From the NCBI GenBank assembly GCA_902573585.1, contig CACGKH010000005.1, positions 1-56,116 of the forward strand: a DNA stretch of 56,116 nucleotides, read 5' to 3'. The notes beneath the pieces were generated by a model, which saw only the letters and a list, made by a program, of their open reading frames with translations, was not told the DNA's origin and did not search any database. How positions within the stretch are numbered: position 1 is the stretch's first letter; each line of letters begins with the position of its first letter. A program made the translations under genes and the position numbers. Of the stretch, positions 5,817 through 28,486 are shown piece by piece. This DNA comes from an uncultured Pelagibacteraceae bacterium (GTDB taxonomy: Bacteria; Pseudomonadota; Alphaproteobacteria; Pelagibacterales; Pelagibacteraceae).

Positions 5817-8221
5817 AGATTACATTTGATTGGCTTAAAGATCATTTAAATATAAATTTAAAAGAGGAAAAACTTTTAGATCAATTAACAAACATTGGTC
5901 TAGAGGTAGAAAGTTTAGGAAATTTATCCTCAGGCAATGAATTATTTAAAGTAGCAAAAATTATAAAAATAGAAAAACATCCAAATGCTGATCGACTAAA
6001 AGTTTGTGATGTTAATATTGGAGAAAAAGAATTAAAAAAAGTTGTTTGCGGGGCAAATAATGCTAGAGAGGGATTACTTACAGTATATGCTCCACCAGGA
6101 GCAATTATTCCCAAAAACAAAACAAAGTTAGTTGTTGCTAAAATTAGAGGTGTTACCTCCTATGGTATGCTTTGTTCTGAGTCTGAATTGAATTTATCAG
6201 ACGAAAGTGATGGAATAATAGAATTATTAAAATCTAAATATGAAAAAAATATTGGTAAGAGCTATTTTTCAAAATCAAATTCAAATCTTATTGACTTATC
6301 AATTACGCCTAACAGGCCTGACTGTCTTGGTTTAAGAGGAATAGCTAGAGATCTTGCTGCTTCTGGTTTTGGAAAATTAAAAGATTTAAAAGAAAAAAAA
6401 TATAAATCAAATTCAAAACAAACTATTAAGATCAAAATTAATAAAGAAAAAAATCAAGGCTGTACTATCTTTGGGAGTTGTTTAATCAGCAATGTTAAAA
6501 ATTCTGAAAGTCCTAAATGGTTAAAAGATAAACTAGTTTCAATAGGTGAAAAACCAATTTCAGCAATAGTTGATATTACGAATTATATAATGTTTGATAT
6601 TAATCGCCCATTGCATGCATATGATGCAGATAAAATTCAAAAAGGCATCGTAGTTCGAAATTCTAAATCTGGTGAAGAATTTACAGCTCTAGACAATAAA
6701 AATTATAAATTAGATAATGGTATGTGCGTGATAAGTGATAATAAAGGTATTTTAGGACTAGGTGGAATTATAGGAGGCACAAGATCAGGAACTGAACTTA
6801 ATACAAAAAATGTATTATTAGAGGCAGCTTATTTTGAGCCTAGATCAATAAGAGACACAGCAAAAAAATTAAATATTGATACAGATGCAAAATTTAGATT
6901 TGAAAGAGGAATTGACCCATCATCTATTGAGGCTGGTTTAAATAAAGCGGCATCATTAATAAAAGAAATATGTGGTGGTGAAATTAGTAAAATTGATATT
7001 CAAAAAATTAATAATTTCAAAAAAAAAACTATTAAATTTGATCCATTTTCATTCGAAAGAGTAACTGGTTTTAAAATTTCAACTAAAGAAATGTTGAAAA
7101 TTTTAGAAGATCTTGGTTTTAAAATTAAAAAAGATAAAAAGTTTTTAAATTTAACTATACCATCATGGAGACCTGATATTTCACAAGAAGTAGATATCGT
7201 TGAAGAATTAGTAAGAATTAGTGGTTATGAAAAGATAAATATCATAAATCCAATTAAAGAAAGAACTAAATCTACTTTAACCCAATCTCAAAAACTTTTT
7301 CATTTTTTGCAAAGAGCAATCGCATCAAAAGGATATTTAGAAGCAATTACGTGGTCATTTACTGACTCAAATTATAACAATCATTTTAAAGATAAAAATA
7401 AAGAAATAAAAATAGTAAATCCCATAAGTTCTGAATTAGGTGTTTTGAGAAATTCAATCTTCTCTAATTTAATAATGTATATGAGTAAAAATCTTGATAG
7501 AGGTTTTAAGGATTTATCAATATTTGAAATTGGTCCTATTTTTAAAGGTTCTAATCCAGGTGAGCAAAGTACAGTGGTTTGTGGTTTATCAGCTGGTAAA
7601 AAAAATAGATTGTCTTGGATTGATAAAGAGAGAGATATTGATGTATTTGATGTTAAGAGAGATGTGATTCAAACCCTAGTTGAGGCTGGTTATAATTCTG
7701 ATAAATTTTTTATAGATAGTGAAACCCCTAATTATTTTCATCCAGGTAAATCAGGTAGATTATTTTTGAATAGAGGAAAAGATTTAGTAGCAGCTTATTT
7801 TGGTGAAATACATCCAAATATTTTAAAAAACATAGATATAAAAACAGATACTTTAGTAGGATTTGAAATTTTCTTAGACAATTTAAAGTTACCTAAAAAA
7901 ACATTGAATGATCAAAAAACAAATTTTGTAGTTTCAGACTATCAAAAATCAGAGAGAGATTTTGCGTTTATAGTAAATAAAAATATAACTTCTCAAGATT
8001 TGATAAATGCAATTTCTAGTGTTGGTCAAAATTTAATAAGCAACATAAAGGTCTTTGATGTTTATGAAGGTAGTAATATTCCTGAAAATCAAAAGTCTAT
8101 TGCAATCAGTGTAACTATTCAATCATTTGAAAAAACATTAAATGATAATGATTTAGAAAAAATAAATAAATTAATCATTCAAACAGTAGAAGATAAGACT
8201 GGTGCTAAGATTCGTTCCTAA
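5813..8221 (+). CDS. pheT: Phenylalanyl-tRNA synthetase beta subunit
   Basis: This 802-residue beta chain carries an N-terminal OB-fold/tRNA-binding domain (about 40-155, with [13 protein letters not shown]), the B3/B4 editing region ([16 protein letters not shown] and the later [12 protein letters not shown]), B5 domains, and a C-terminal ferredoxin-like anticodon-binding domain ([11 protein letters not shown]). It pairs with PheS to charge tRNA-Phe and to edit mischarged Tyr. It starts inside the pheS stop. The tRNA-Phe gene lies elsewhere in the window at 46680. Confidence 0.98.
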
Positions 8222-8228
8222 AAATTAA

Positions 8229-10040
8229 ATGAGCACTATAGATAATATAAGAAACTTTGCGATCATTGCTCATATTGATCATGGTAAATCCACTATAGCA
8301 GATAGAATTATTCATAAGTGTGGTGGTTTAACTGAAAGAGAAATGAAGGCGCAAGTTCTTGACTCAATGGATATTGAAAGAGAGAGGGGTATAACTATTA
8401 AAGCTCAAACAGTAAAATTAAATTATAAAGCAAAAAATGGCAAAGATTATATTTTAAATATAATTGATACACCGGGACATGTAGATTTTAGCTATGAAGT
8501 TAGCAGATCTCTTTATGCTTGTGAGGGATCGATATTAATTGTAGATAGCACACAAGGCGTAGAAGCTCAAACATTAGCTAACGTTTATCAAGCTCTAGAT
8601 ATAAATCATGAAATAATTCCTGTGCTGAATAAAATAGATTTGCCAGCTTCAGATTTGGACAAAACGAAAAAACAGATTGAAGATGTAATTGGAATAGATA
8701 CAGAAAATGCAGTTCCATGCTCGGGTAAAACTGGTGAGGGTATAGATGATATTTTAGAACAAATCATTGAAAGACTACCTGGGCCAAAAGGTGACACAGA
8801 AGAAAGTTTAAAATGTTTATTGGTTGACAGTTGGTACGACACATATCTAGGAGTTGTAATATTAGTAAGAGTAATTAATGGAAAAATTACAAAGAACATG
8901 AAAATTAAAATGCTGTCAACTGACCAAGACTATATAGTAGAAAAAGTCGGTGTATTTACACCCAAAGCTAGAGATACCAATGAATTAAGTACAGGAGAGA
9001 TAGGTTTTATAACAACAGGAATTAAGGTTTTATCAGAAACTAAAGTCGGAGACACTATTTGTGATGCTAATAAACCAATAGTTGAAGTTTTACCGGGTTT
9101 TAAGCCAAGCAAGCCAGTTGTATTTTGTGGTTTGTTTCCAGTGGATAGTTCTGAGTATCAAAAATTAAAAGATGGCCTAGCAAAATTGAAATTAAATGAT
9201 TCAAGTTTTTCTTTTGAGCCAGAGTCATCATCAGCTTTAGGTTTAGGATTTAGGTGTGGATTTTTAGGATTATTACATCTCGAAATAATAACAGAAAGAT
9301 TAGAAAGAGAATTCGATGTAAATTTATTAACAACAACTCCTGGAGTTGTTTACAAAATAAATTTGAACACTGAAAAAACAATAGATCTTCAAAATCCTTC
9401 AAGTTTACCAGATCCAACTATAATAAAATCAATAGAAGAACCATGGATTAAAGCAACAATAATTACCCCTGATCAATATTTAGGATCAATTATTAAATTA
9501 TGCCAAGATAAGAGAGGTATTCAAACAAACTTAACTTATTCAGGAAATAGAGCGGTATTAAGTTATGAATTACCACTAAATGAAGTAGTTTTTGATTTTA
9601 ATGATAGAATAAAATCAATGACCAGTGGCTATGCAAGCTTTGATTATGAGATAATAGAACACAGAGAAGGAGACCTAGTAAAATTAGGAATCTTAGTAAA
9701 TGGAGAGCCAGTAGATGCACTTGCAATGATGATCCATAAAGATTTTGCCCAGAGGACAGGTAGAGAAGTTTGTGAAAAATTAAAAGATTTAATTCCAAGA
9801 CATAATTTTATGATTCCAGTACAAGCTGCGATAGGTGGAAAAATTATAGCGAGAGAGACTATTAAAGGCTTTAAAAAAGATGTATTAACAAAAATTCATG
9901 GTGGTGGGGCAACAGATAGAAAAAGAAAACTGCTTGAAAAACAAAAAAAAGGAAAAGCTAGATCTAAACAATTTGGGAGAGTAGAGATACCTCAGGAGGC
10001 ATTTATTGGTGTTTTAAAAATTAATGGAGACAAACAATGA
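8229..10040 (+). CDS. lepA: Elongation factor 4 (LepA), ribosomal GTPase
   Basis: This 603-residue translational GTPase has G1 AHIDHGKST at about residues 13-21, G3 DTPGHVDF, and G4 NKIDLP. It also carries EF-G-like domains and the LepA-specific C-terminal domain ending in a very basic segment ([14 protein letters not shown]). EF4 acts on ribosomes in back-translocation or in ribosome biogenesis under stress. It ends the core block: its stop overlaps the next gene (10037) by 4 bases, so the polysaccharide island may be read through from this operon. Confidence 0.98.
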
Positions 10041-10552
10041 GATTATTATCAACAAAGATAAAAGATATTAAAAAAATTAAAACCAAAATTTTTAAAGATA
10101 AAAGAGGTTTTTTTAAAGAAATCTACAAAAAAAAAATTTTAAAAAAAAATTTTATTTTTGATGTTATGTCATATTCTAAAAAAAATGTATTGAGAGGATT
10201 ACATATACAGACCAAGTTTCCTCAAGCTAAACTTATTACTGTAACTTCTGGAAAAATAATGGATATAGCTGTTGATTTACGAAAAAACTCTAAAAGTTTT
10301 GGTAAATATTACTCTACAATTATCTCACAAGACTCAGATTTTTCATTATTTATACCCGAGGGCTTTGCTCATGGTTTTCTTTGTTTATCTCGAACATGCA
10401 CAATTAATTATAAATGTTCAGAATATAGAAATAAAAAAAGTGAAAAAACCTTAAGATGGGATGATGAACAAACTAATATAAAATGGCCAATTAAAAAACC
10501 TATATTATCTTTGAAAGATAAAAATGGAAAAAATTTAGATTTTTTTAGATAA
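10037..10552 (+). CDS. rfbC: dTDP-4-dehydrorhamnose 3,5-epimerase-like (RmlC family)
   Basis: These 171 residues form a single cupin domain. RmlC-type landmarks are VLRGLHIQ (53-60 region), [21 protein letters not shown] and [13 protein letters not shown], which provide the active-site histidine and substrate pocket. The family epimerises C3 and C5 of dTDP-4-keto-6-deoxyglucose or a related sugar. It is slightly shorter than classical RmlC (about 180). It starts inside the lepA stop and opens the surface-polysaccharide island. The next gene encodes an RmlD-like reductase, so the pair may complete a 6-deoxyhexose; no rmlA or rmlB is in the window. Confidence 0.88.
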
Positions 10553-10557
10553 AACTT

Positions 10558-11268
10558 ATGAGAAAAAAAATTATTATTACAGGAGGCACAGGTAGATTTG
10601 GTCAATTATTAAGGAAAATCAAAACTAAATACATTGTTTTTTTTCCCACAAAAAAAGAACTAGATATACTTAATTCAAATAAAATTGAAAAATATTTTAA
10701 TAAAAAAAAACCAAATTTTGTAATTCATTTGGCAGGATTATCGAGACCAATGAATATTCACAATACCAACATTAATAAAAGTATCGATTTGAACATTATT
10801 GGAACTGCTAATATTACTAAGGCATGCTCAAGAAAAAAAATTAAATTAATTTATTTATCAACAAACTATGTTTATCAAGGGACTAAAGGAAACTATAAAG
10901 AGACTGACCCTGTAAAACCTATAAATAGTTATGCTTGGTCAAAATTAGGCGGTGAAGCGTCAGTTCAATTATATAAAAACTCTTTAATTTTAAGAACATG
11001 TATGACTGAAAAACCTTTTGTTCATAAAAAGGCTTTTGTGGATGCTAAAACAAGTTTTTTATATCAAGATGAAGTAGCCAAAATATTATTTAAATTAATT
11101 AATAAAAAAGGAATAATAAATGTAGGTGGAAAATCTCAATATATTTTTGATTTTGCAAAAAAGGATAATAAAAAAGTTAAAAAAATTTATTTAAAAAAAA
11201 TGAAAAATTTTCCAAAAGATTCGTCAATTAATTCATCGAAGTTAAAATCTTTAATTAAAATAAAATAA
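10558..11268 (+). CDS. RmlD-like NAD(P)-dependent sugar reductase/epimerase
   Basis: At 236 residues this is a short extended-SDR protein. The nucleotide-binding GGTGRFG lies at about 9-15, the catalytic Ser/Thr region reads LIYLSTNYVYQG, and the YxxxK pair appears as YAWSK near residue 125. It most resembles dTDP-4-dehydrorhamnose reductases, which reduce the 4-keto group of an activated deoxysugar. The C-terminal substrate domain is shorter than in typical RmlD (about 290 residues). It lies 5 bases after the rfbC-like gene, suggesting a shared pathway. The exact sugar cannot be told from the sequence. Confidence 0.8.
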   Translation: MRKKIIITGGTGRFGQLLRKIKTKYIVFFPTKKELDILNSNKIEKYFNKKKPNFVIHLAGLSRPMNIHNTNINKSIDLNIIGTANITKACSRKKIKLIYLSTNYVYQGTKGNYKETDPVKPINSYAWSKLGGEASVQLYKNSLILRTCMTEKPFVHKKAFVDAKTSFLYQDEVAKILFKLINKKGIINVGGKSQYIFDFAKKDNKKVKKIYLKKMKNFPKDSSINSSKLKSLIKIK

Positions 11269-23634: not shown

Positions 23635-24915
23635 ATGAAGTTTTTTGAAACTTCAAAATATTACACTTTAAAAAAATCCACTTATATTACCCTCAGATGG
23701 ATTGGTATAATTGGTCAATTAATCTCAATAAATGTTGTTTATTTTTACTTTAATTTTAATTTTGATTTTATACTTTCAAATTTTGTTATTTTATTAGGAG
23801 TCTTTAGTAATCTTTTTTTAATTTTTATTTATAAAAAAACACAGCTTTCGGACAGATCTGCCTTAACTTTTTTATTAATAGATATTTTTCAACTTGGAGT
23901 TTTAATTTATTTAACTGGTGGAATCTCAAATCCATTTGTAATTTTTCTAATTATACCAAGTGTTTTTGCTTCTTCAAATTTAGGATTAAGAACGAATATG
24001 TTACTTGTTATAACAACAATATTAATAATAGTTTTTCTAACCTTTTACTCAGAGGACTTGCCTGATCCATTAAATAATCATTTTCACGTAGATCCATATT
24101 ATTATTATTCAATACCAGTTGCACTAATTATAGCTTTAGTTTTTTTGAATTATTTTGCAATTATTTTCGGAACAGAATCAAGACTAAGAAAAGAAGCTTT
24201 AAATAAAATGGAAGAGGTTATGGCCAAAGAACATGAGATGTTATCTTTAGGTGGACAGGCTGCAGCAGCAGCTCATTCTTTGGGGACACCACTCTCAACA
24301 ATTAAGATAATTTCGCAAGAACTTAAAAAACAATTGAGTGGTCAAAAAGATGTTGTTCAAGACATAGAATTACTCACTAGCCAAGTTGAAAGATGTAATG
24401 AGATTTTGAAAAAGTTATCATTAAACCCAACAGAGGAAGACGATTTTATTGATGAAAATTTTAGTATTAGAGATTATCTAAAGGAAATTATTTTATCATT
24501 TAAAGAAACAAGCTCTAAAGAGTTCATTTTAAATTTTGAGCAAGATTCAAATCAAAAAAAAATGACAAGATCAATAGAAGTAGTCTATGGACTAAGAAAT
24601 TTTATCGGTAATGCAAATAAATTTAGTGAGAGCAAGATATTCATCAATCTTAAAAGCAATAATGATTTTACTGAAATATCAATCGAAGATGACGGGGAAG
24701 GTTATCCAAGTAATATTCTATCAAAAATAGGAGAACCTTATTTAAAATCAGTTATTCAGGAAGATAAAAAAAAAACAGGCCTTGGATTAGGAATATTTAT
24801 AGGAAAAACTTTGTTAGAAAAAAACTTTGCATCTGTAAATTGTAGAAATTCAAAAACAAAAAGTGGAGCAGAGGTTATTATTAAATGGAATAATAATGAT
24901 TTAATGAAAATTTAA
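23635..24915 (+). CDS. regB: RegB/PrrB-type redox sensor histidine kinase
   Basis: At 426 residues, it has about six N-terminal membrane helices (20-175), with the quinone-contacting GGISNPF motif of RegB at 95-101. The H-box [15 protein letters not shown] places the phosphorylated His at about 214. A cysteine in QVERCNEIL (about 254) matches the redox-active cysteine of RegB. The N-box reads [13 protein letters not shown], and the G-boxes appear as DDGEGYP and GLGLGIFIG. RegB senses the quinone pool and phosphorylates RegA to control energy metabolism. No regA response regulator is in the window. The 3' end overlaps the convergent cobT-like gene by 4 bases. Confidence 0.9.
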
Positions 24916-26714
24916 TGTAACTTATTTTTTTTGTCAAAAAGAGAACTTAATTGAGAAATCATTACATCGCCAAGCTCATTAACATCAGTAATTTTTATTG
25001 CTTTATTATAATATCTTGAAACGTCATGGCCAATTCCAATAGCTAAAATTTCAATTTCTGTTTTATCTTCAATATATTTTACCATTTTTTTTAAATGTTT
25101 TTCTAAAAAATCTCCTGAATTAACAGATAAAGTTGAGTCATCCACGGGTGCTCCATCAGAAATAACCATTAATATTTTTCTTTCTTCTTTTCTTTTTTTA
25201 ATTCTATTAAATGCCCATGATATTGCCTCGCCATCTATGTTTTCTTTTAATAATCCCTCTTTAAGCATCAAGCCCAAGTTATTTTTAGCTTGTCTCCAAT
25301 GAGTGTCAGCTCCTTTGTAGATTATATGTCTTAGATCATTTAATCTGCCAGGTGTTTTGGGTTTACTATTTTTATTCCAAAATTCTCTACTTTGACCACC
25401 TTTCCAGTTTTTTGTGGTAAAACCCAAAATCTCAACTTTGACAGAGCATCTTTCTAAAGTTCTTGATAAAATATCTGCGCAGATTGCTGCTATGGTTATT
25501 GGTCTTCCTCTCATTGATCCTGAGTTATCAATTAGCAATGTTACAACTGTATCTTTAAAATCTAAATCTTTTTCTTTTTTGAATGATAAAGAATTATAAG
25601 GGTCCATTATAATTCGAGGTAATTTTGAACTATCAAGCAACCCTTCCTCTAAATCAAATTCCCAAGATCTATTTTGTTTAGCTAATAATTGTCGTTGAAG
25701 CTTATTTGCAAGTTTTGTAATTATATCCTGAAAACCTATTAATTGTTGATCTAAGGTTTTTCTTAATTTTACCGCTTCATCAAAATTTTCTAAATTTTCA
25801 GCCTTAAGGGTTTCATCAAATTGAGTTGTATAAATTTTATAATCTAAATTAAGGTCAGTAATATTTTTTTTTTGTATTATCTGCTCATTATTTTGCTGAT
25901 CAGAGTCAGTATCAACTAATTGTTCATCAAGTTTGAATTCGTCTATATCATAATCAGAATCTAAGCTAGCCTCAGTTTCCTCTTCATTGTTTTGTTCTTT
26001 TTTATCATCAGACTCACTATTTTGATCATCATTAGATGGATTATTTTGTCCATCATCTTGATTCTCCTCCTTACTTTGTTCATTTTCTTCATTTTGAAAA
26101 ATATCCATCTTTTGAAGTATTTCGGAAAATTTTGATGAATATTTATCTTGAGATTCTAAATTTTCCTTTAAAAATTTAATATGTCCATTAATTGCTTTAT
26201 CAAAATCTTTTTCCCAAAAGCTTAACATTTTACTGGTGAATGAATTTAATTTTAAATTATAAAATTTTTTAAGCATATAAAGTTCAAATGCTTCAATTAC
26301 AGGCACGTCTTCTTTAGTCTTAATTTGATCTTTTTTTTTTAAATCAATATTTTGATTATAATTTTCCTTTAGATTTTTTTCTATCCCTTTTAACATTTTA
26401 AAACCTAAAGACTCATATCTGACTTTTTCAGCTATAGTGTACAGTGATTTACAAGATGAATTAAAAGGTATATTTTTTTTGAAAATTTTATCATTTGAAA
26501 ATTTTTTTTTTAAAGCAAATGAGTCATATTCTGCTCTTGCTTTAATAAAATCATTTGGAGAATTTAAATTTTCGATATCAAAAAATCCAATTTCTTTTGA
26601 ACTTTTATTTTTTTCTGAATCATCTTTGATTTTAAAATCATCAGAGATAACTTTAGCGGTTGAGGATAAAGCTTGTTTTAGTTTTTCTTTTAAATTATCA
26701 CTTTTATTATTCAT
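24912..26714 (-). CDS. cobT: CobT-like VWA-domain protein
   Basis: This 600-residue protein resembles the CobT subunit of aerobic cobaltochelatase. It has an N-terminal helical region, a very acidic Asn/Asp/Glu-rich linker (about 205-275) and a C-terminal von Willebrand A domain with the MIDAS motif DNSGSMRG (around residue 390) plus [12 protein letters not shown]. CobT with the AAA+ CobS drives metal insertion by CobN. No cobN or other cobalamin gene is in the window, and SAR11 is generally considered unable to make cobalamin de novo. The pair may act as a MoxR/VWA-type chaperone on another target; that role is inference. Confidence 0.88.
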
Positions 26715-27689
26715 TTAAATTTGAATATTAATTAGAGACTCTGGCAGATCCTCGCCAAAACATCTTTGATAATATTCTGCTATAGTATTTTTTTCTATAT
26801 CATCACATTTATTCAAAAATGTTACTCTAAAAGCATAACCTGTATCTTTAAATATTTCTGTATTTTCTGCCCAATGTAAAACAGTTCTTGGACTCATTAC
26901 AGTAGATATATCACCTGCAATAAACCCTTTTCTTGTTAGTGAGGCCACTTTAATCATATTTGAAATAGTTTCTTTACCTTTTTGATTATTAAAATTTTTA
27001 TTTTTTGATAGCACAATATCCATTTCTTTTTCTAAACTTAAATAATTAAGTGTTGTTACAATATTCCATCTATCCATTTGACCTTGATTTATTTGCTGGG
27101 TTCCATGATATAAGCCAGTTGTATCGCCTAAGCCAACTGTGTTGGATGTAGCAAATAATCTAAAAAATTTGTTTTGTTTGATTACTTTGTTCTTATCTAG
27201 AAGTGTAAAGTTTCCTTCAGCCTCCAACACCCTCTGAATAACAAACATAACGTCTGGTCTTCCTGCATCGTATTCGTCAAAAACTAAAGCTACTGGATTT
27301 TGAATTGACCAGGGCAGAATACCCTCATTAAATTGTGTAACTTGTTTACCATCTTTTAAAACAATCGCATCTTTTCCAATTAAATCTATCCTACTTACAT
27401 GGCTATCAAGATTAACTCTTATGCATGGCCAGTTTAGTCTTGCAGCTATTTGTTCAATATGAGTTGACTTACCGGTCCCATGATACCCTTGAACTAATAC
27501 TCTCTTATTAAATGCAAACCCAGATATAATTGCTAATGTTGTATCTCTATCAAATTTGTAATTTTTATCTATTTCAGGAACATATTCATTTTTTTTTGAA
27601 AATGCCTGGACTTGCATTTCAGAATTTATTCCAAAGGTTTGTTTAATGGAAACTTTAATATCAGGCTGGGTGTTTAAGTCAGGTGTCAA
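26715..27689 (-). CDS. cobS: CobS-like AAA+ ATPase
   Basis: This 324-residue ATPase is of the CobS/MoxR type. Walker A is GYHGTGKST (68-76), Walker B is LVFDEYDAGRPDV, and the sensor/loop segment reads LFATSNTVGLGDTTGLYHG. The N-terminal segment (DIKVSIKQTFGINSEMQVQAF) is shared with alphaproteobacterial CobS. It probably forms hexameric rings with the CobT-like VWA partner encoded directly after it. Its start lies within the end of the J-domain gene (11-base overlap), so the three genes form one operon. In classical pathways CobS hydrolyses ATP for cobalt insertion; here the substrate is uncertain. Confidence 0.92.
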   Translation of the reverse strand: MTPDLNTQPDIKVSIKQTFGINSEMQVQAFSKKNEYVPEIDKNYKFDRDTTLAIISGFAFNKRVLVQGYHGTGKSTHIEQIAARLNWPCIRVNLDSHVSRIDLIGKDAIVLKDGKQVTQFNEGILPWSIQNPVALVFDEYDAGRPDVMFVIQRVLEAEGNFTLLDKNKVIKQNKFFRLFATSNTVGLGDTTGLYHGTQQINQGQMDRWNIVTTLNYLSLEKEMDIVLSKNKNFNNQKGKETISNMIKVASLTRKGFIAGDISTVMSPRTVLHWAENTEIFKDTGYAFRVTFLNKCDDIEKNTIAEYYQRCFGEDLPESLINIQI

Positions 27690-28206
27690 TTTTTTCTCTA
27701 TAAGTATTTTTTAGTTGGGTATAAGCCAAAGTTATTAGTTTAAGTTTTTCCTCGTATTTTTTATTACCCGAATTCATATCAGGGTGAAATTTTTTGACAA
27801 GTATTTTGAATTTCTCTTGAATTTTTTGCCATTTTAAACCCACTGAAATACCTAGAATACTAAAAGCTTTTATGTCTTTATGATCAAATTTAAATTGACG
27901 CATATGATTATAATCACTTTTAAATTTATCTTTATCAAGTTCATCCTTGAGTGTGTTGCTCCAAAGAATCTTAAAAAAATTATCAGAAGAACTAAAACTC
28001 TGGGTTGGTTTGTGCCAAATCATATCAGATTTTAAGAAATCTATAACTTGATCATCATTCATTCCTGAAAAGTAATTCCAGTTTTTGTTAAATTCTTTTA
28101 CGTGCTCTAAACAAAGCATCCTATACTTTTTGCTATTATCTTTTTCAATTGGAGCTTTATAATCACCTAATTTATTACAATTATTCCAGTCACATATATT
28201 TTTCAT
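27679..28206 (-). CDS. J-domain (DnaJ-like) protein
   Basis: These 175 residues carry a C-terminal J domain (about 115-172) with the HPD motif in LVKKFHPDMNSGN and the supporting FSILGISVGLKWQKIQEKFK helix. The N-terminal part has a Cys-rich start (ICDWNNCNKLGDYKAPI) and conserved WNYFSGM. This architecture, encoded just upstream of cobS-cobT, is common in alphaproteobacteria. The J domain should stimulate an Hsp70 (DnaK), perhaps for assembly of the CobS/CobT complex or its client. It diverges from bolA with only 19 bases between the starts. Confidence 0.88.
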   Translation of the reverse strand: MKNICDWNNCNKLGDYKAPIEKDNSKKYRMLCLEHVKEFNKNWNYFSGMNDDQVIDFLKSDMIWHKPTQSFSSSDNFFKILWSNTLKDELDKDKFKSDYNHMRQFKFDHKDIKAFSILGISVGLKWQKIQEKFKILVKKFHPDMNSGNKKYEEKLKLITLAYTQLKNTYREKIDT

Positions 28207-28225
28207 GATATAATGAATAATACTT

Positions 28226-28486
28226 ATGGATATAAATGATACAATTGCAATTGTAAAAAAAAAGCTACATGATCATATTGATATAAAAAACATCAATATT
28301 GAAGACAAATCTTTTCTACATAAAAATCATTCCGGCCATGAAGAAGGGAAGTTTCATTTAAAAATTACTATAGAGTCCCCTGAGCTAAAAAAAATGAATA
28401 AAATCGAAAGTACCAAAAAAGTTTATAAAGTTTTGGATAAAGAATTAAAAGAACTAATACACTCTATTCAAATTTTAATTAATTAA
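28226..28486 (+). CDS. bolA: BolA-family protein
   Basis: This 86-residue protein has the BolA fold signature: an N-terminal helix, a variable loop with HKNHSGHEEGKFHLKI, and the conserved C-terminal VYKVLDKELKELIHSIQI helix. BolA proteins bind [2Fe-2S] clusters jointly with monothiol glutaredoxins; the His in the HSGH loop and a C-terminal His are the usual ligands. It may therefore link to iron-sulfur homeostasis. The start is the ATG at 28226; the 3' end overlaps the convergent aroB by 12 bases. Confidence 0.9.
   Translation: MDINDTIAIVKKKLHDHIDIKNINIEDKSFLHKNHSGHEEGKFHLKITIESPELKKMNKIESTKKVYKVLDKELKELIHSIQILIN

What the first reader, a model, noticed from the sequence alone, without database searches (positions are those of the whole stretch)
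24912..28206. J-domain, CobS-like and CobT-like operon with no cobalamin genes nearby
The trio is compact and intact (Walker A/B, MIDAS, HPD). The classical function is cobalt insertion with CobN, but no cobalamin gene is seen and SAR11 is not known to make cobalamin de novo. It may be a repurposed AAA+/VWA metal-insertion or chaperone machine with an Hsp70 link.
Basis: partly seen in the sequence, partly recalled or inferred. Interest (0 to 1): 0.52.

Follow-up and report, generated by a model that had tools for sequence, protein, structure and literature searches.

The report
Cobalt-enzyme motor kept without its enzyme
An ocean bacterium keeps the ATP-driven motor half of a vitamin B12 cobalt-insertion enzyme although the cobalt-inserting half and the vitamin pathway appear to be missing, and relatives across its bacterial class do the same, so the motor very probably has a second, unidentified job.

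Summary
CobT (24912-26714), CobS (26715-27689) and a J protein (27679-28206) form one minus-strand operon with Walker A/B, MIDAS and HPD motifs; a BolA gene starts 19 bp away on the other strand. CobN-type large subunits are found in 0 of 118 SAR11-family genomes, CbiC/CobH in 0 of 118, CobT in 113 of 118.

It is not a SAR11 oddity. In 144 alphaproteobacterial genomes CobT is in 118: without CobN in 66, with CobN in 52; Caulobacter is a named CobN-less carrier. The order BolA|J-CobS-CobT is common in both groups.

Most likely this is an ATP-driven AAA+/VWA motor, orthologous to the cobaltochelatase motor, acting on another client. A metal-cofactor client is a guess resting on BolA and on reported EDTA/copper effects of Caulobacter cobT disruption (PMC11870441, passages). 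The client is unknown. Against a fixed trio: the J protein also occurs in 14 of 26 CobT-less genomes, and 19 of 101 loci show no J gene near CobT. Whether the CobN-less state is ancestral is only weakly supported.

The parts
24912..26714 (-). CobT-like subunit, 600 aa: N-terminal CobT domain, acidic linker, C-terminal VWA domain with MIDAS (D396, S398, S400, D520)
   Evidence: a match in 113 of 118 SAR11-family genomes, a few of them partial
26715..27689 (-). CobS-like AAA+ ATPase subunit, 324 aa, TTG start, Walker A K74, Walker B D138/E139
   Evidence: over the equivalog cut-off; solved CobS 9ujv at E 1e-152
27679..28206 (-). J protein, 175 aa: N-terminal C-x4-C...C-x2-H domain for which no Pfam or PDB relative was found, C-terminal J domain with HPD 141-143
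   Evidence: (C5, C10, C32, H35, HPD invariant in 80 aligned rows, two rows without the pattern having been left out)
28226..28486 (+). BolA-family protein, 86 aa, divergent from the operon, 19 bp between start codons
   Evidence: PF01722 49.2 bits, cut-off 25.7; a BolA gene on the strand opposite to CobT in 74 of 101 fetched stretches

Best explanation
The operon encodes the motor half (CobS AAA+ ring plus CobT VWA/MIDAS ring) of the aerobic cobaltochelatase family, kept for a CobN-independent job. Shown here: the proteins belong to the cobaltochelatase CobS and CobT families, catalytic motifs are intact and under purifying selection, the large chelatase subunit and a key corrin-synthesis enzyme were not found in the family, and the block BolA|J-CobS-CobT is common across Alphaproteobacteria with or without CobN. 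Inferred: CobS hydrolyses ATP, the CobT MIDAS domain docks a client other than CobN, and ring motion remodels that client. Guessed: the client is a metalloprotein or a metal/Fe-S cofactor maturation factor, the J protein recruits Hsp70 to it, and BolA works in the same process. In CobN-carrying relatives the same single CobT presumably serves CobN as well. The confidence below is for the CobN-independent motor; for the metal-cofactor part I would say about 0.35.
For: CobN: 0 of 118 SAR11-family genomes, CobT 113 of 118; CbiC/CobH 0 of 118. Class sample of 144: CobT+CobN+ 52, CobT+CobN- 66, CobN without CobT 1, neither 25. Each of the 52 CobN+ carriers shows one match to the CobT model (table), so no second CobT-type gene was seen that could serve CobN alone. 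Caulobacter vibrioides, a named control, has CobT over the cut-off but rings for neither CobN model. Shared neighbourhood: CobS near CobT in 96 of 101 stretches, J in 82, BolA in 74 (CobN+ 39, 33, 29 of 40; CobN- 57, 49, 45 of 61). Walker and MIDAS residues at 90% or more in both groups. dN/dS medians 0.084-0.27. CobN+ and CobN- tips are interspersed in the CobST tree, 19 changes. Metal link: PMC11870441 (passages) reports that among genes said to support fitness under copper stress only cobT (CCNA_01367) disruption strongly affected fitness in EDTA. CobST-like pairs stand beside xsc in 4 of 6 non-alpha loci fetched, from two genera, which suggests clients other than CobN.
Against: No client has been identified and no biochemistry was possible. 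BolA proximity may be mere synteny: aroB, aroK, bL28 and a CNNM/CorC gene are also neighbours in 43-52 of 101 stretches. J occurs in 14 of 26 CobT-less genomes and is weak, split or missing in 10 of 118 carriers. The copper point could not be confirmed in the papers that PMC11870441 cites: a term search of PMC8224329 finds no cobT in its main text, the Price 2018 paper is not held, and the direction of the EDTA effect is in a table I could not read. CobT is over the NCBIfam equivalog cut-off in 0 of 118 SAR11-family genomes. Three of the six non-alpha genomes with CobST-like genes do have CobN-type genes.
Confidence: 0.62

Rival explanations
1. Vestige: CobST is a decaying remnant of a lost aerobic B12 pathway.
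For: CobN and CbiC were not found in the SAR11 family; CobT falls below the equivalog cut-off there.
Against: Catalytic motifs kept, low dN/dS, presence in 113 of 118 genomes of about 1 Mb, 71 of 71 quartets in loci with room, and persistence in 66 of 144 class genomes without CobN.
Confidence: 0.04
2. Metal chelation with an unrecognised, non-homologous large subunit, for cobalt or another metal into a tetrapyrrole.
For: CobST belong to the chelatase motor families; Caulobacter cobT has metal-stress effects (PMC11870441).
Against: No PF02514 match in any of 118 SAR11 genomes or in the Caulobacter control and no corrin isomerase in the SAR11 family. Apart from J, BolA, aroB, aroK and bL28 no gene cluster lies near CobT in most of the 61 CobN-less stretches, though a subunit encoded elsewhere would not show.
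Confidence: 0.12
3. Midasin-like role: CobST pulls an assembly factor off a maturing ribosome or another large complex, with the J protein recruiting Hsp70.
For: Outside CobS, the best solved relative of the window CobS is midasin, 6or5 at E 6.7e-24; a bL28 gene is a neighbour in 50 of 101 stretches (one representative identified).
Against: bL28 is encoded on the opposite strand about 2.5 kb away and may be plain synteny; the one reported phenotype is metal stress, not translation; the best midasin match covers only residues 64-187 of the AAA module.
Confidence: 0.12
4. B12 remodelling or cofactor loading: CobST services B12-dependent enzymes using imported B12.
For: MeaB-type genes in 23 and methylmalonyl-CoA mutase-type genes in 11 of 101 stretches near CobT (one representative of each identified).
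Against: B12-binding domains pass the cut-off in only 31 of 118 SAR11-family genomes while CobT is in 113. Class II ribonucleotide reductase passes its cut-off in 1 of 118, while 104 have some match, so B12 use in SAR11 stays open.
Confidence: 0.06

Closest known systems
Aerobic cobaltochelatase CobNST, motor subunits CobS and CobT (TIGR01650, TIGR01651; solved chains 9ujv, 9uka, 21vt, 21vu)
   Same: Full-length CobS and CobT with Walker A/B and MIDAS residues; the CobS C-terminal and CobT N-terminal regions align with the two fragments held in entry 21vu.
   Different: No CobN or other PF02514 protein and no CbiC/CobH found in the family; the operon includes a J protein and faces BolA.
Orphan CobST and ChlI/ChlD-type pairs without a large subunit (phage cobST, PMC8651126; frameshifted chlD in two bacteria, PMC9227772; passages seen)
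   Same: AAA+ plus VWA pair without CobN/ChlH. The window CobS matches 459 phage records, all under 60% identity.
   Different: Those papers concern viruses and other bacteria; here the pair is widespread in one bacterial class, with J and BolA beside it.
MoxR/VWA metal-enzyme activators CbbQ/CbbO and NorQ/NorD (function recalled; sequence match)
   Same: AAA+ ring plus VWA partner acting on a protein client (recalled); CbbQ (6l1q, E 9.8e-6) and NorQ (9qh4, E 1.3e-4) are distant sequence relatives.
   Different: Different subfamily; their clients are encoded next to them (recalled), here no client gene is evident.
Midasin (Rea1/Mdn1)
   Same: AAA+ module most similar to CobS outside CobS itself, with a MIDAS/VWA domain (recalled).
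   Different: One giant eukaryotic chain; here two separate small subunits.

Membership tests
Aerobic cobaltochelatase (CobNST) | CobS AAA+ subunit | tested here: met
   TIGR01650 573 bits over cut-off 558.55; solved CobS at E 1e-152
Aerobic cobaltochelatase (CobNST) | CobT VWA subunit at equivalog level | tested here: inconclusive
   Full-length match and both Pfam domains, but 616.4 bits is under the 759.05 cut-off
Aerobic cobaltochelatase (CobNST) | CobN large (chelating) subunit | tested here: not met
   PF02514: 0 of 1 own genome at 71% completeness; 0 of 118 family genomes, 66 of them high quality; the search rings in 5 of 14 control genomes
Aerobic cobaltochelatase (CobNST) | Corrin substrate made in the same organism | tested here: not met
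   One pathway enzyme tested: CbiC/CobH PF02570 0 of 118, rings in 7 of 14 controls
Aerobic cobaltochelatase (CobNST) | ATP-dependent cobalt insertion activity | not testable with these tools
   No biochemistry possible
CobS/CobT AAA+/VWA motor pair (no claim on substrate) | Adjacent AAA+ with Walker A/B and VWA with MIDAS, both intact | tested here: met
   purifying selection
J-domain co-chaperones | J fold with HPD motif | tested here: met
   PF00226, HPD in 82 of 82, J-domain rows at residues of about 109-175, best Z about 7; Foldseek E-values were all above 0.001
J-domain co-chaperones | Stimulates an Hsp70 | not testable with these tools
   Inferred from HPD only
BolA family | BolA domain | tested here: met
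   PF01722 49.2 bits, cut-off 25.7
BolA family | Binds Fe-S with a monothiol glutaredoxin | not tested
   Recalled function of the family; ligand residues not examined

The most novel reading that the evidence does not exclude
In Alphaproteobacteria the proteins annotated as cobaltochelatase CobS and CobT are first of all a general client-remodelling machine, working with the J protein and BolA in metal-cofactor maturation; CobN was plugged into this pre-existing motor later, and the B12 role is the derived, optional one. In a tree rooted on non-alpha CobST pairs the first four groups to split off (20 of 96 tips) are all CobN-less, and a CobN-less root needs 19 changes against 21.
Probability: 0.28. 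Interest if true: 0.8.

Novelty: new variant of a known kind. Interest (0 to 1): 0.56.

Why it matters
The name cobaltochelatase is used to infer vitamin B12 synthesis (PMC2667541 lists CobS and CobT among its marker genes, passage; PMC11870441 describes Caulobacter cobT as a B12 gene, passage). Here 66 of 118 CobT-carrying class genomes have no CobN, nor has any of the 113 SAR11-family carriers, so CobS/CobT alone should not be read as B12 synthesis, which matters for ocean B12 budgets. If the motor has a second client, a widespread ATP-driven machine of Alphaproteobacteria, kept even in genomes of about 1 Mb, has an undiscovered function that can be tested directly in Caulobacter.

Tried and rejected
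Promoter and terminator scan of the operon: promoter-like sites not clearly above shuffles (31 against 25.1, sd 4.8) and one terminator-like site, inside cobT on the other strand. PADLOC: only weak AAA+ matches (IetA 26 bits and less, BrxF 14.5), not a defence system. N-terminal domain of the J protein alone: only sub-threshold Pfam matches, no PDB sequence relative at E 1, Foldseek E-values all above 1; the model is of medium confidence (pLDDT 76), so its fold is unassigned, not new. NrdJ search in SAR11 was inconclusive. B12-binding domains in SAR11: the frames over the cut-off are mostly 427-724 aa and were not identified further; the own-genome contig was fetched (L169), but the protein tested from it (no family) is not the B12-binding frame. 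Rooted ancestral state: a CobN-less root is favoured at equal costs but ties at gain:loss 4:1 and loses at 6:1, and the basal groups have long branches, so long-branch attraction is possible. The script printed that the outgroup was not monophyletic; one search showed that it is (support 1.0); I take the message to come from how the tree had been rerooted. BolA and J as an obligate set: not supported, since in 14 CobT-less genomes BolA was seen near J in 3 loci only; in one of the other 11 (L180) J lies at the contig end.

Paper searches (all ten used): their listings show no paper whose title or abstract describes CobST without CobN in Alphaproteobacteria or the BolA-J-CobS-CobT block; the library lacks most subscription journals and most listed papers were not opened. 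Papers opened, by term search only: PMC11870441, PMC10206600, PMC8651126, PMC9227772, PMC2667541, PMC4006046, PMC10743472, PMC2847970 and PMC7717549 (passages seen) and PMC8224329 (no term found, so no passage seen); all others by listing only.

Dropped or reassigned rows: seven class genomes with only weak CobN matches (G010, G076, G081, G097, G105, G116, G125; six have roughly 1250-1400-aa frames at about 300 bits, which I take for BchH, untested; G097 has 46 bits) were counted CobN-less; counting them CobN+ gives 59 and 59 in place of 52 and 66. G073 and G078, below the cut-off, were counted CobN+ on partial or split matches. Neighbourhoods were read for 54 of the 66 CobN-less carriers plus the window (itself one of the 66) and 6 further SAR11-family genomes, and for 40 of the 52 CobN+ carriers; eight of the 61 CobN-less stretches are SAR11 and closely related. 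Two J hits without the metal-site pattern (L109, L126) were left out of alignment A1; alignment A2 holds 52 of 80 rows. Of the 113 SAR11-family CobT matches one (G206) is a 20-bit fragment and several are partial. The 80 named SAR11 loci are the best 80 of a capped list.
Full report
What is there. The minus-strand operon at 24912-28206 encodes CobT, CobS and a J protein exactly as described, with an 11-nt overlap between J and CobS and none between CobS and CobT. CobS passes its equivalog cut-off, CobT matches over its full length but under the cut-off, and the J protein has a standard J domain. Solved CobS and CobT chains are the best matches among solved structures, at E 1e-152 and 1.5e-154. 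A BolA gene (28226-28486) starts 19 bp from the J start on the other strand. The nearest named relatives of the CobS are Pelagibacteraceae at up to 95% identity, including Candidatus Pelagibacter ubique HTCC9565 at 90%, so the window is SAR11.

Is the chelatase missing? The window's genome is only 71% complete, so its own lack of CobN proves little. In the family, however, PF02514 is found in 0 of 118 genomes (0 of 66 of high quality) while CobT is found in 113 of 118 (65 of 66), and the corrin isomerase CbiC/CobH in 0 of 118. The five genomes without a CobT match are 83-92% complete. Other cobalamin genes were not searched. B12-binding domains pass the cut-off in 31 of 118; class II ribonucleotide reductase is inconclusive (1 of 118 over the cut-off, 104 with some match), so B12 use is open although de novo B12 synthesis looks excluded.

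Not a SAR11 peculiarity. In 144 genomes spread over the class, CobT is in 118 and CobN over its cut-off in 51, with any match in 60. Setting seven weak matches aside gives CobT with CobN 52, CobT alone 66, CobN alone 1 and neither 25; counting them the other way gives 59 and 59. The Caulobacter vibrioides control carries CobT over the cut-off and rings for neither CobN model. In a sample of 249 genomes of the phylum, CobT over the cut-off is seen in 81, all of the same class; the seven matched genomes outside the class have only partial or weaker matches. Of the 26 CobT-less class genomes 20 are listed with sizes: 0.7-2.3 Mb, except one of 5.4 Mb.

A shared block. In 100 fetched stretches plus the window, CobS is near CobT in 96 of 101, the J gene in 82 and a BolA gene on the opposite strand in 74. 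The proportions are alike in CobN+ (39, 33 and 29 of 40) and CobN- stretches (57, 49 and 45 of 61). Other neighbours are aroB (52), bL28 on the opposite strand (50), a CNNM/CorC protein (48), aroK (43), MeaB (23) and methylmalonyl-CoA mutase (11) (bL28, CNNM, MeaB and the mutase named from one representative each), so part of this is plain regional synteny; BolA-J-CobS-CobT is the tightest part. In named SAR11 loci with enough room it is complete in 71 of 71. A Bartonella grahamii paper lists dnaJ2 and cobS as the two genes flanking one sequenced region (PMC2847970, passage).

Function is kept. Walker A, Walker B and MIDAS residues are conserved at 90% or more in CobN+ and CobN- groups alike. 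CobN- tips lie hardly further from the midpoint root than CobN+ tips (medians 1.73 and 1.69); the two states are interspersed, with 19 changes on the 96-tip tree, but fewer than in shuffles (mean 30.6, least 24), so CobN status still follows kinship. In SAR11 the median pairwise dN/dS is 0.27 for CobT, 0.084 for CobS, 0.20 for J and 0.36 for AroB (AroB from 7 sequences only); the pairs are not independent and dS is often high.

The J protein. It has an N-terminal C-x4-C...C-x2-H site (80 of 82 sequences) and HPD (82 of 82). The model (pLDDT 85.8) shows a J domain at the C terminus; for the N-terminal part no described family or structure was found. At 130 bits or more it is found in 108 of 118 CobT carriers but also in 14 of 26 CobT-less genomes, where BolA was seen near it in 3 of 14 loci.

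How it probably works. CobST of cobaltochelatase is an ATP-driven motor that docks CobN; PMC10206600 states that six CobS and six CobT appear to form a two-tiered hexameric ring that likely docks one CobN (passage). Without CobN the same motor must act on something else. CobST-like pairs outside the class stand beside xsc (sulfoacetaldehyde acetyltransferase, over its cut-off in all four) in 4 of 6 loci fetched, which come from two genera, though CobN-type genes exist in 3 of those 6 genomes. Phages carry CobS-like genes widely (459 records; PMC8651126, passage, suggests that viral CobST uses host CobN). Evidence for a metal-related job is thin: the BolA neighbour, and Caulobacter cobT, whose disruption strongly affects fitness in EDTA and which was said to support fitness under copper stress (PMC11870441, passages). 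I could not confirm this in the sources it cites.

Which came first? Rooting the CobST tree on five non-alpha pairs puts 20 CobN-less tips in the first four groups to split off; a CobN-less root costs 19 changes against 21. The preference ties when a gain costs four times a loss, and reverses at six times. The basal lineages are long-branched, so this is only a lead.

Verdict. The best reading is a CobN-independent AAA+/VWA motor with an unknown client, not a cobaltochelatase and not a vestige. It is a variant of a known machine; the interest lies in a class-wide orphan motor under a misleading name, and in the ease of testing it in Caulobacter.

Noticed in passing
L163, L164, L166, L167 (non-alpha genomes), CobST-like pair around 7300-10800: CobS/CobT-like pairs stand beside xsc (sulfoacetaldehyde acetyltransferase); in L166 a pta gene is near too. 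A possible different client for a CobST-type motor.
   Followed up: partly
28226-28486: BolA gene divergent from the J gene with only 19 bp between start codons; a BolA gene on the opposite strand in 74 of 101 stretches of the class.
   Followed up: yes
23635-24915: RegB/ActS/PrrB-type redox histidine kinase (NF033792 384.6 bits, cut-off 350), convergent with cobT and overlapping it by 4 nt; whether a RegA partner exists was not checked.
   Followed up: no
L157:4040-5104 and L157:166-2370: MeaB and methylmalonyl-CoA mutase type genes lie near CobT in 23 and 11 of 101 stretches, in CobN+ and CobN- genomes; B12-using enzymes near an orphan CobST.
   Followed up: partly
L170-L183 (CobT-less genomes): The J protein with the Cys/His site persists in 14 of 26 class genomes that have no CobT match, so it may have a job of its own.
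   Followed up: partly
G105:C5:298579-299178 (not fetched): A second, partial CobT-like match (208 bits, 342-aa frame) in one class genome.
   Followed up: no
SAR11-family genomes, for example G169:C1:126921-128513: A ribonucleotide reductase, in frames mostly of 645-670 aa, scores about 200-280 bits to the class II model, under its cut-off; its class is undecided.
   Followed up: no
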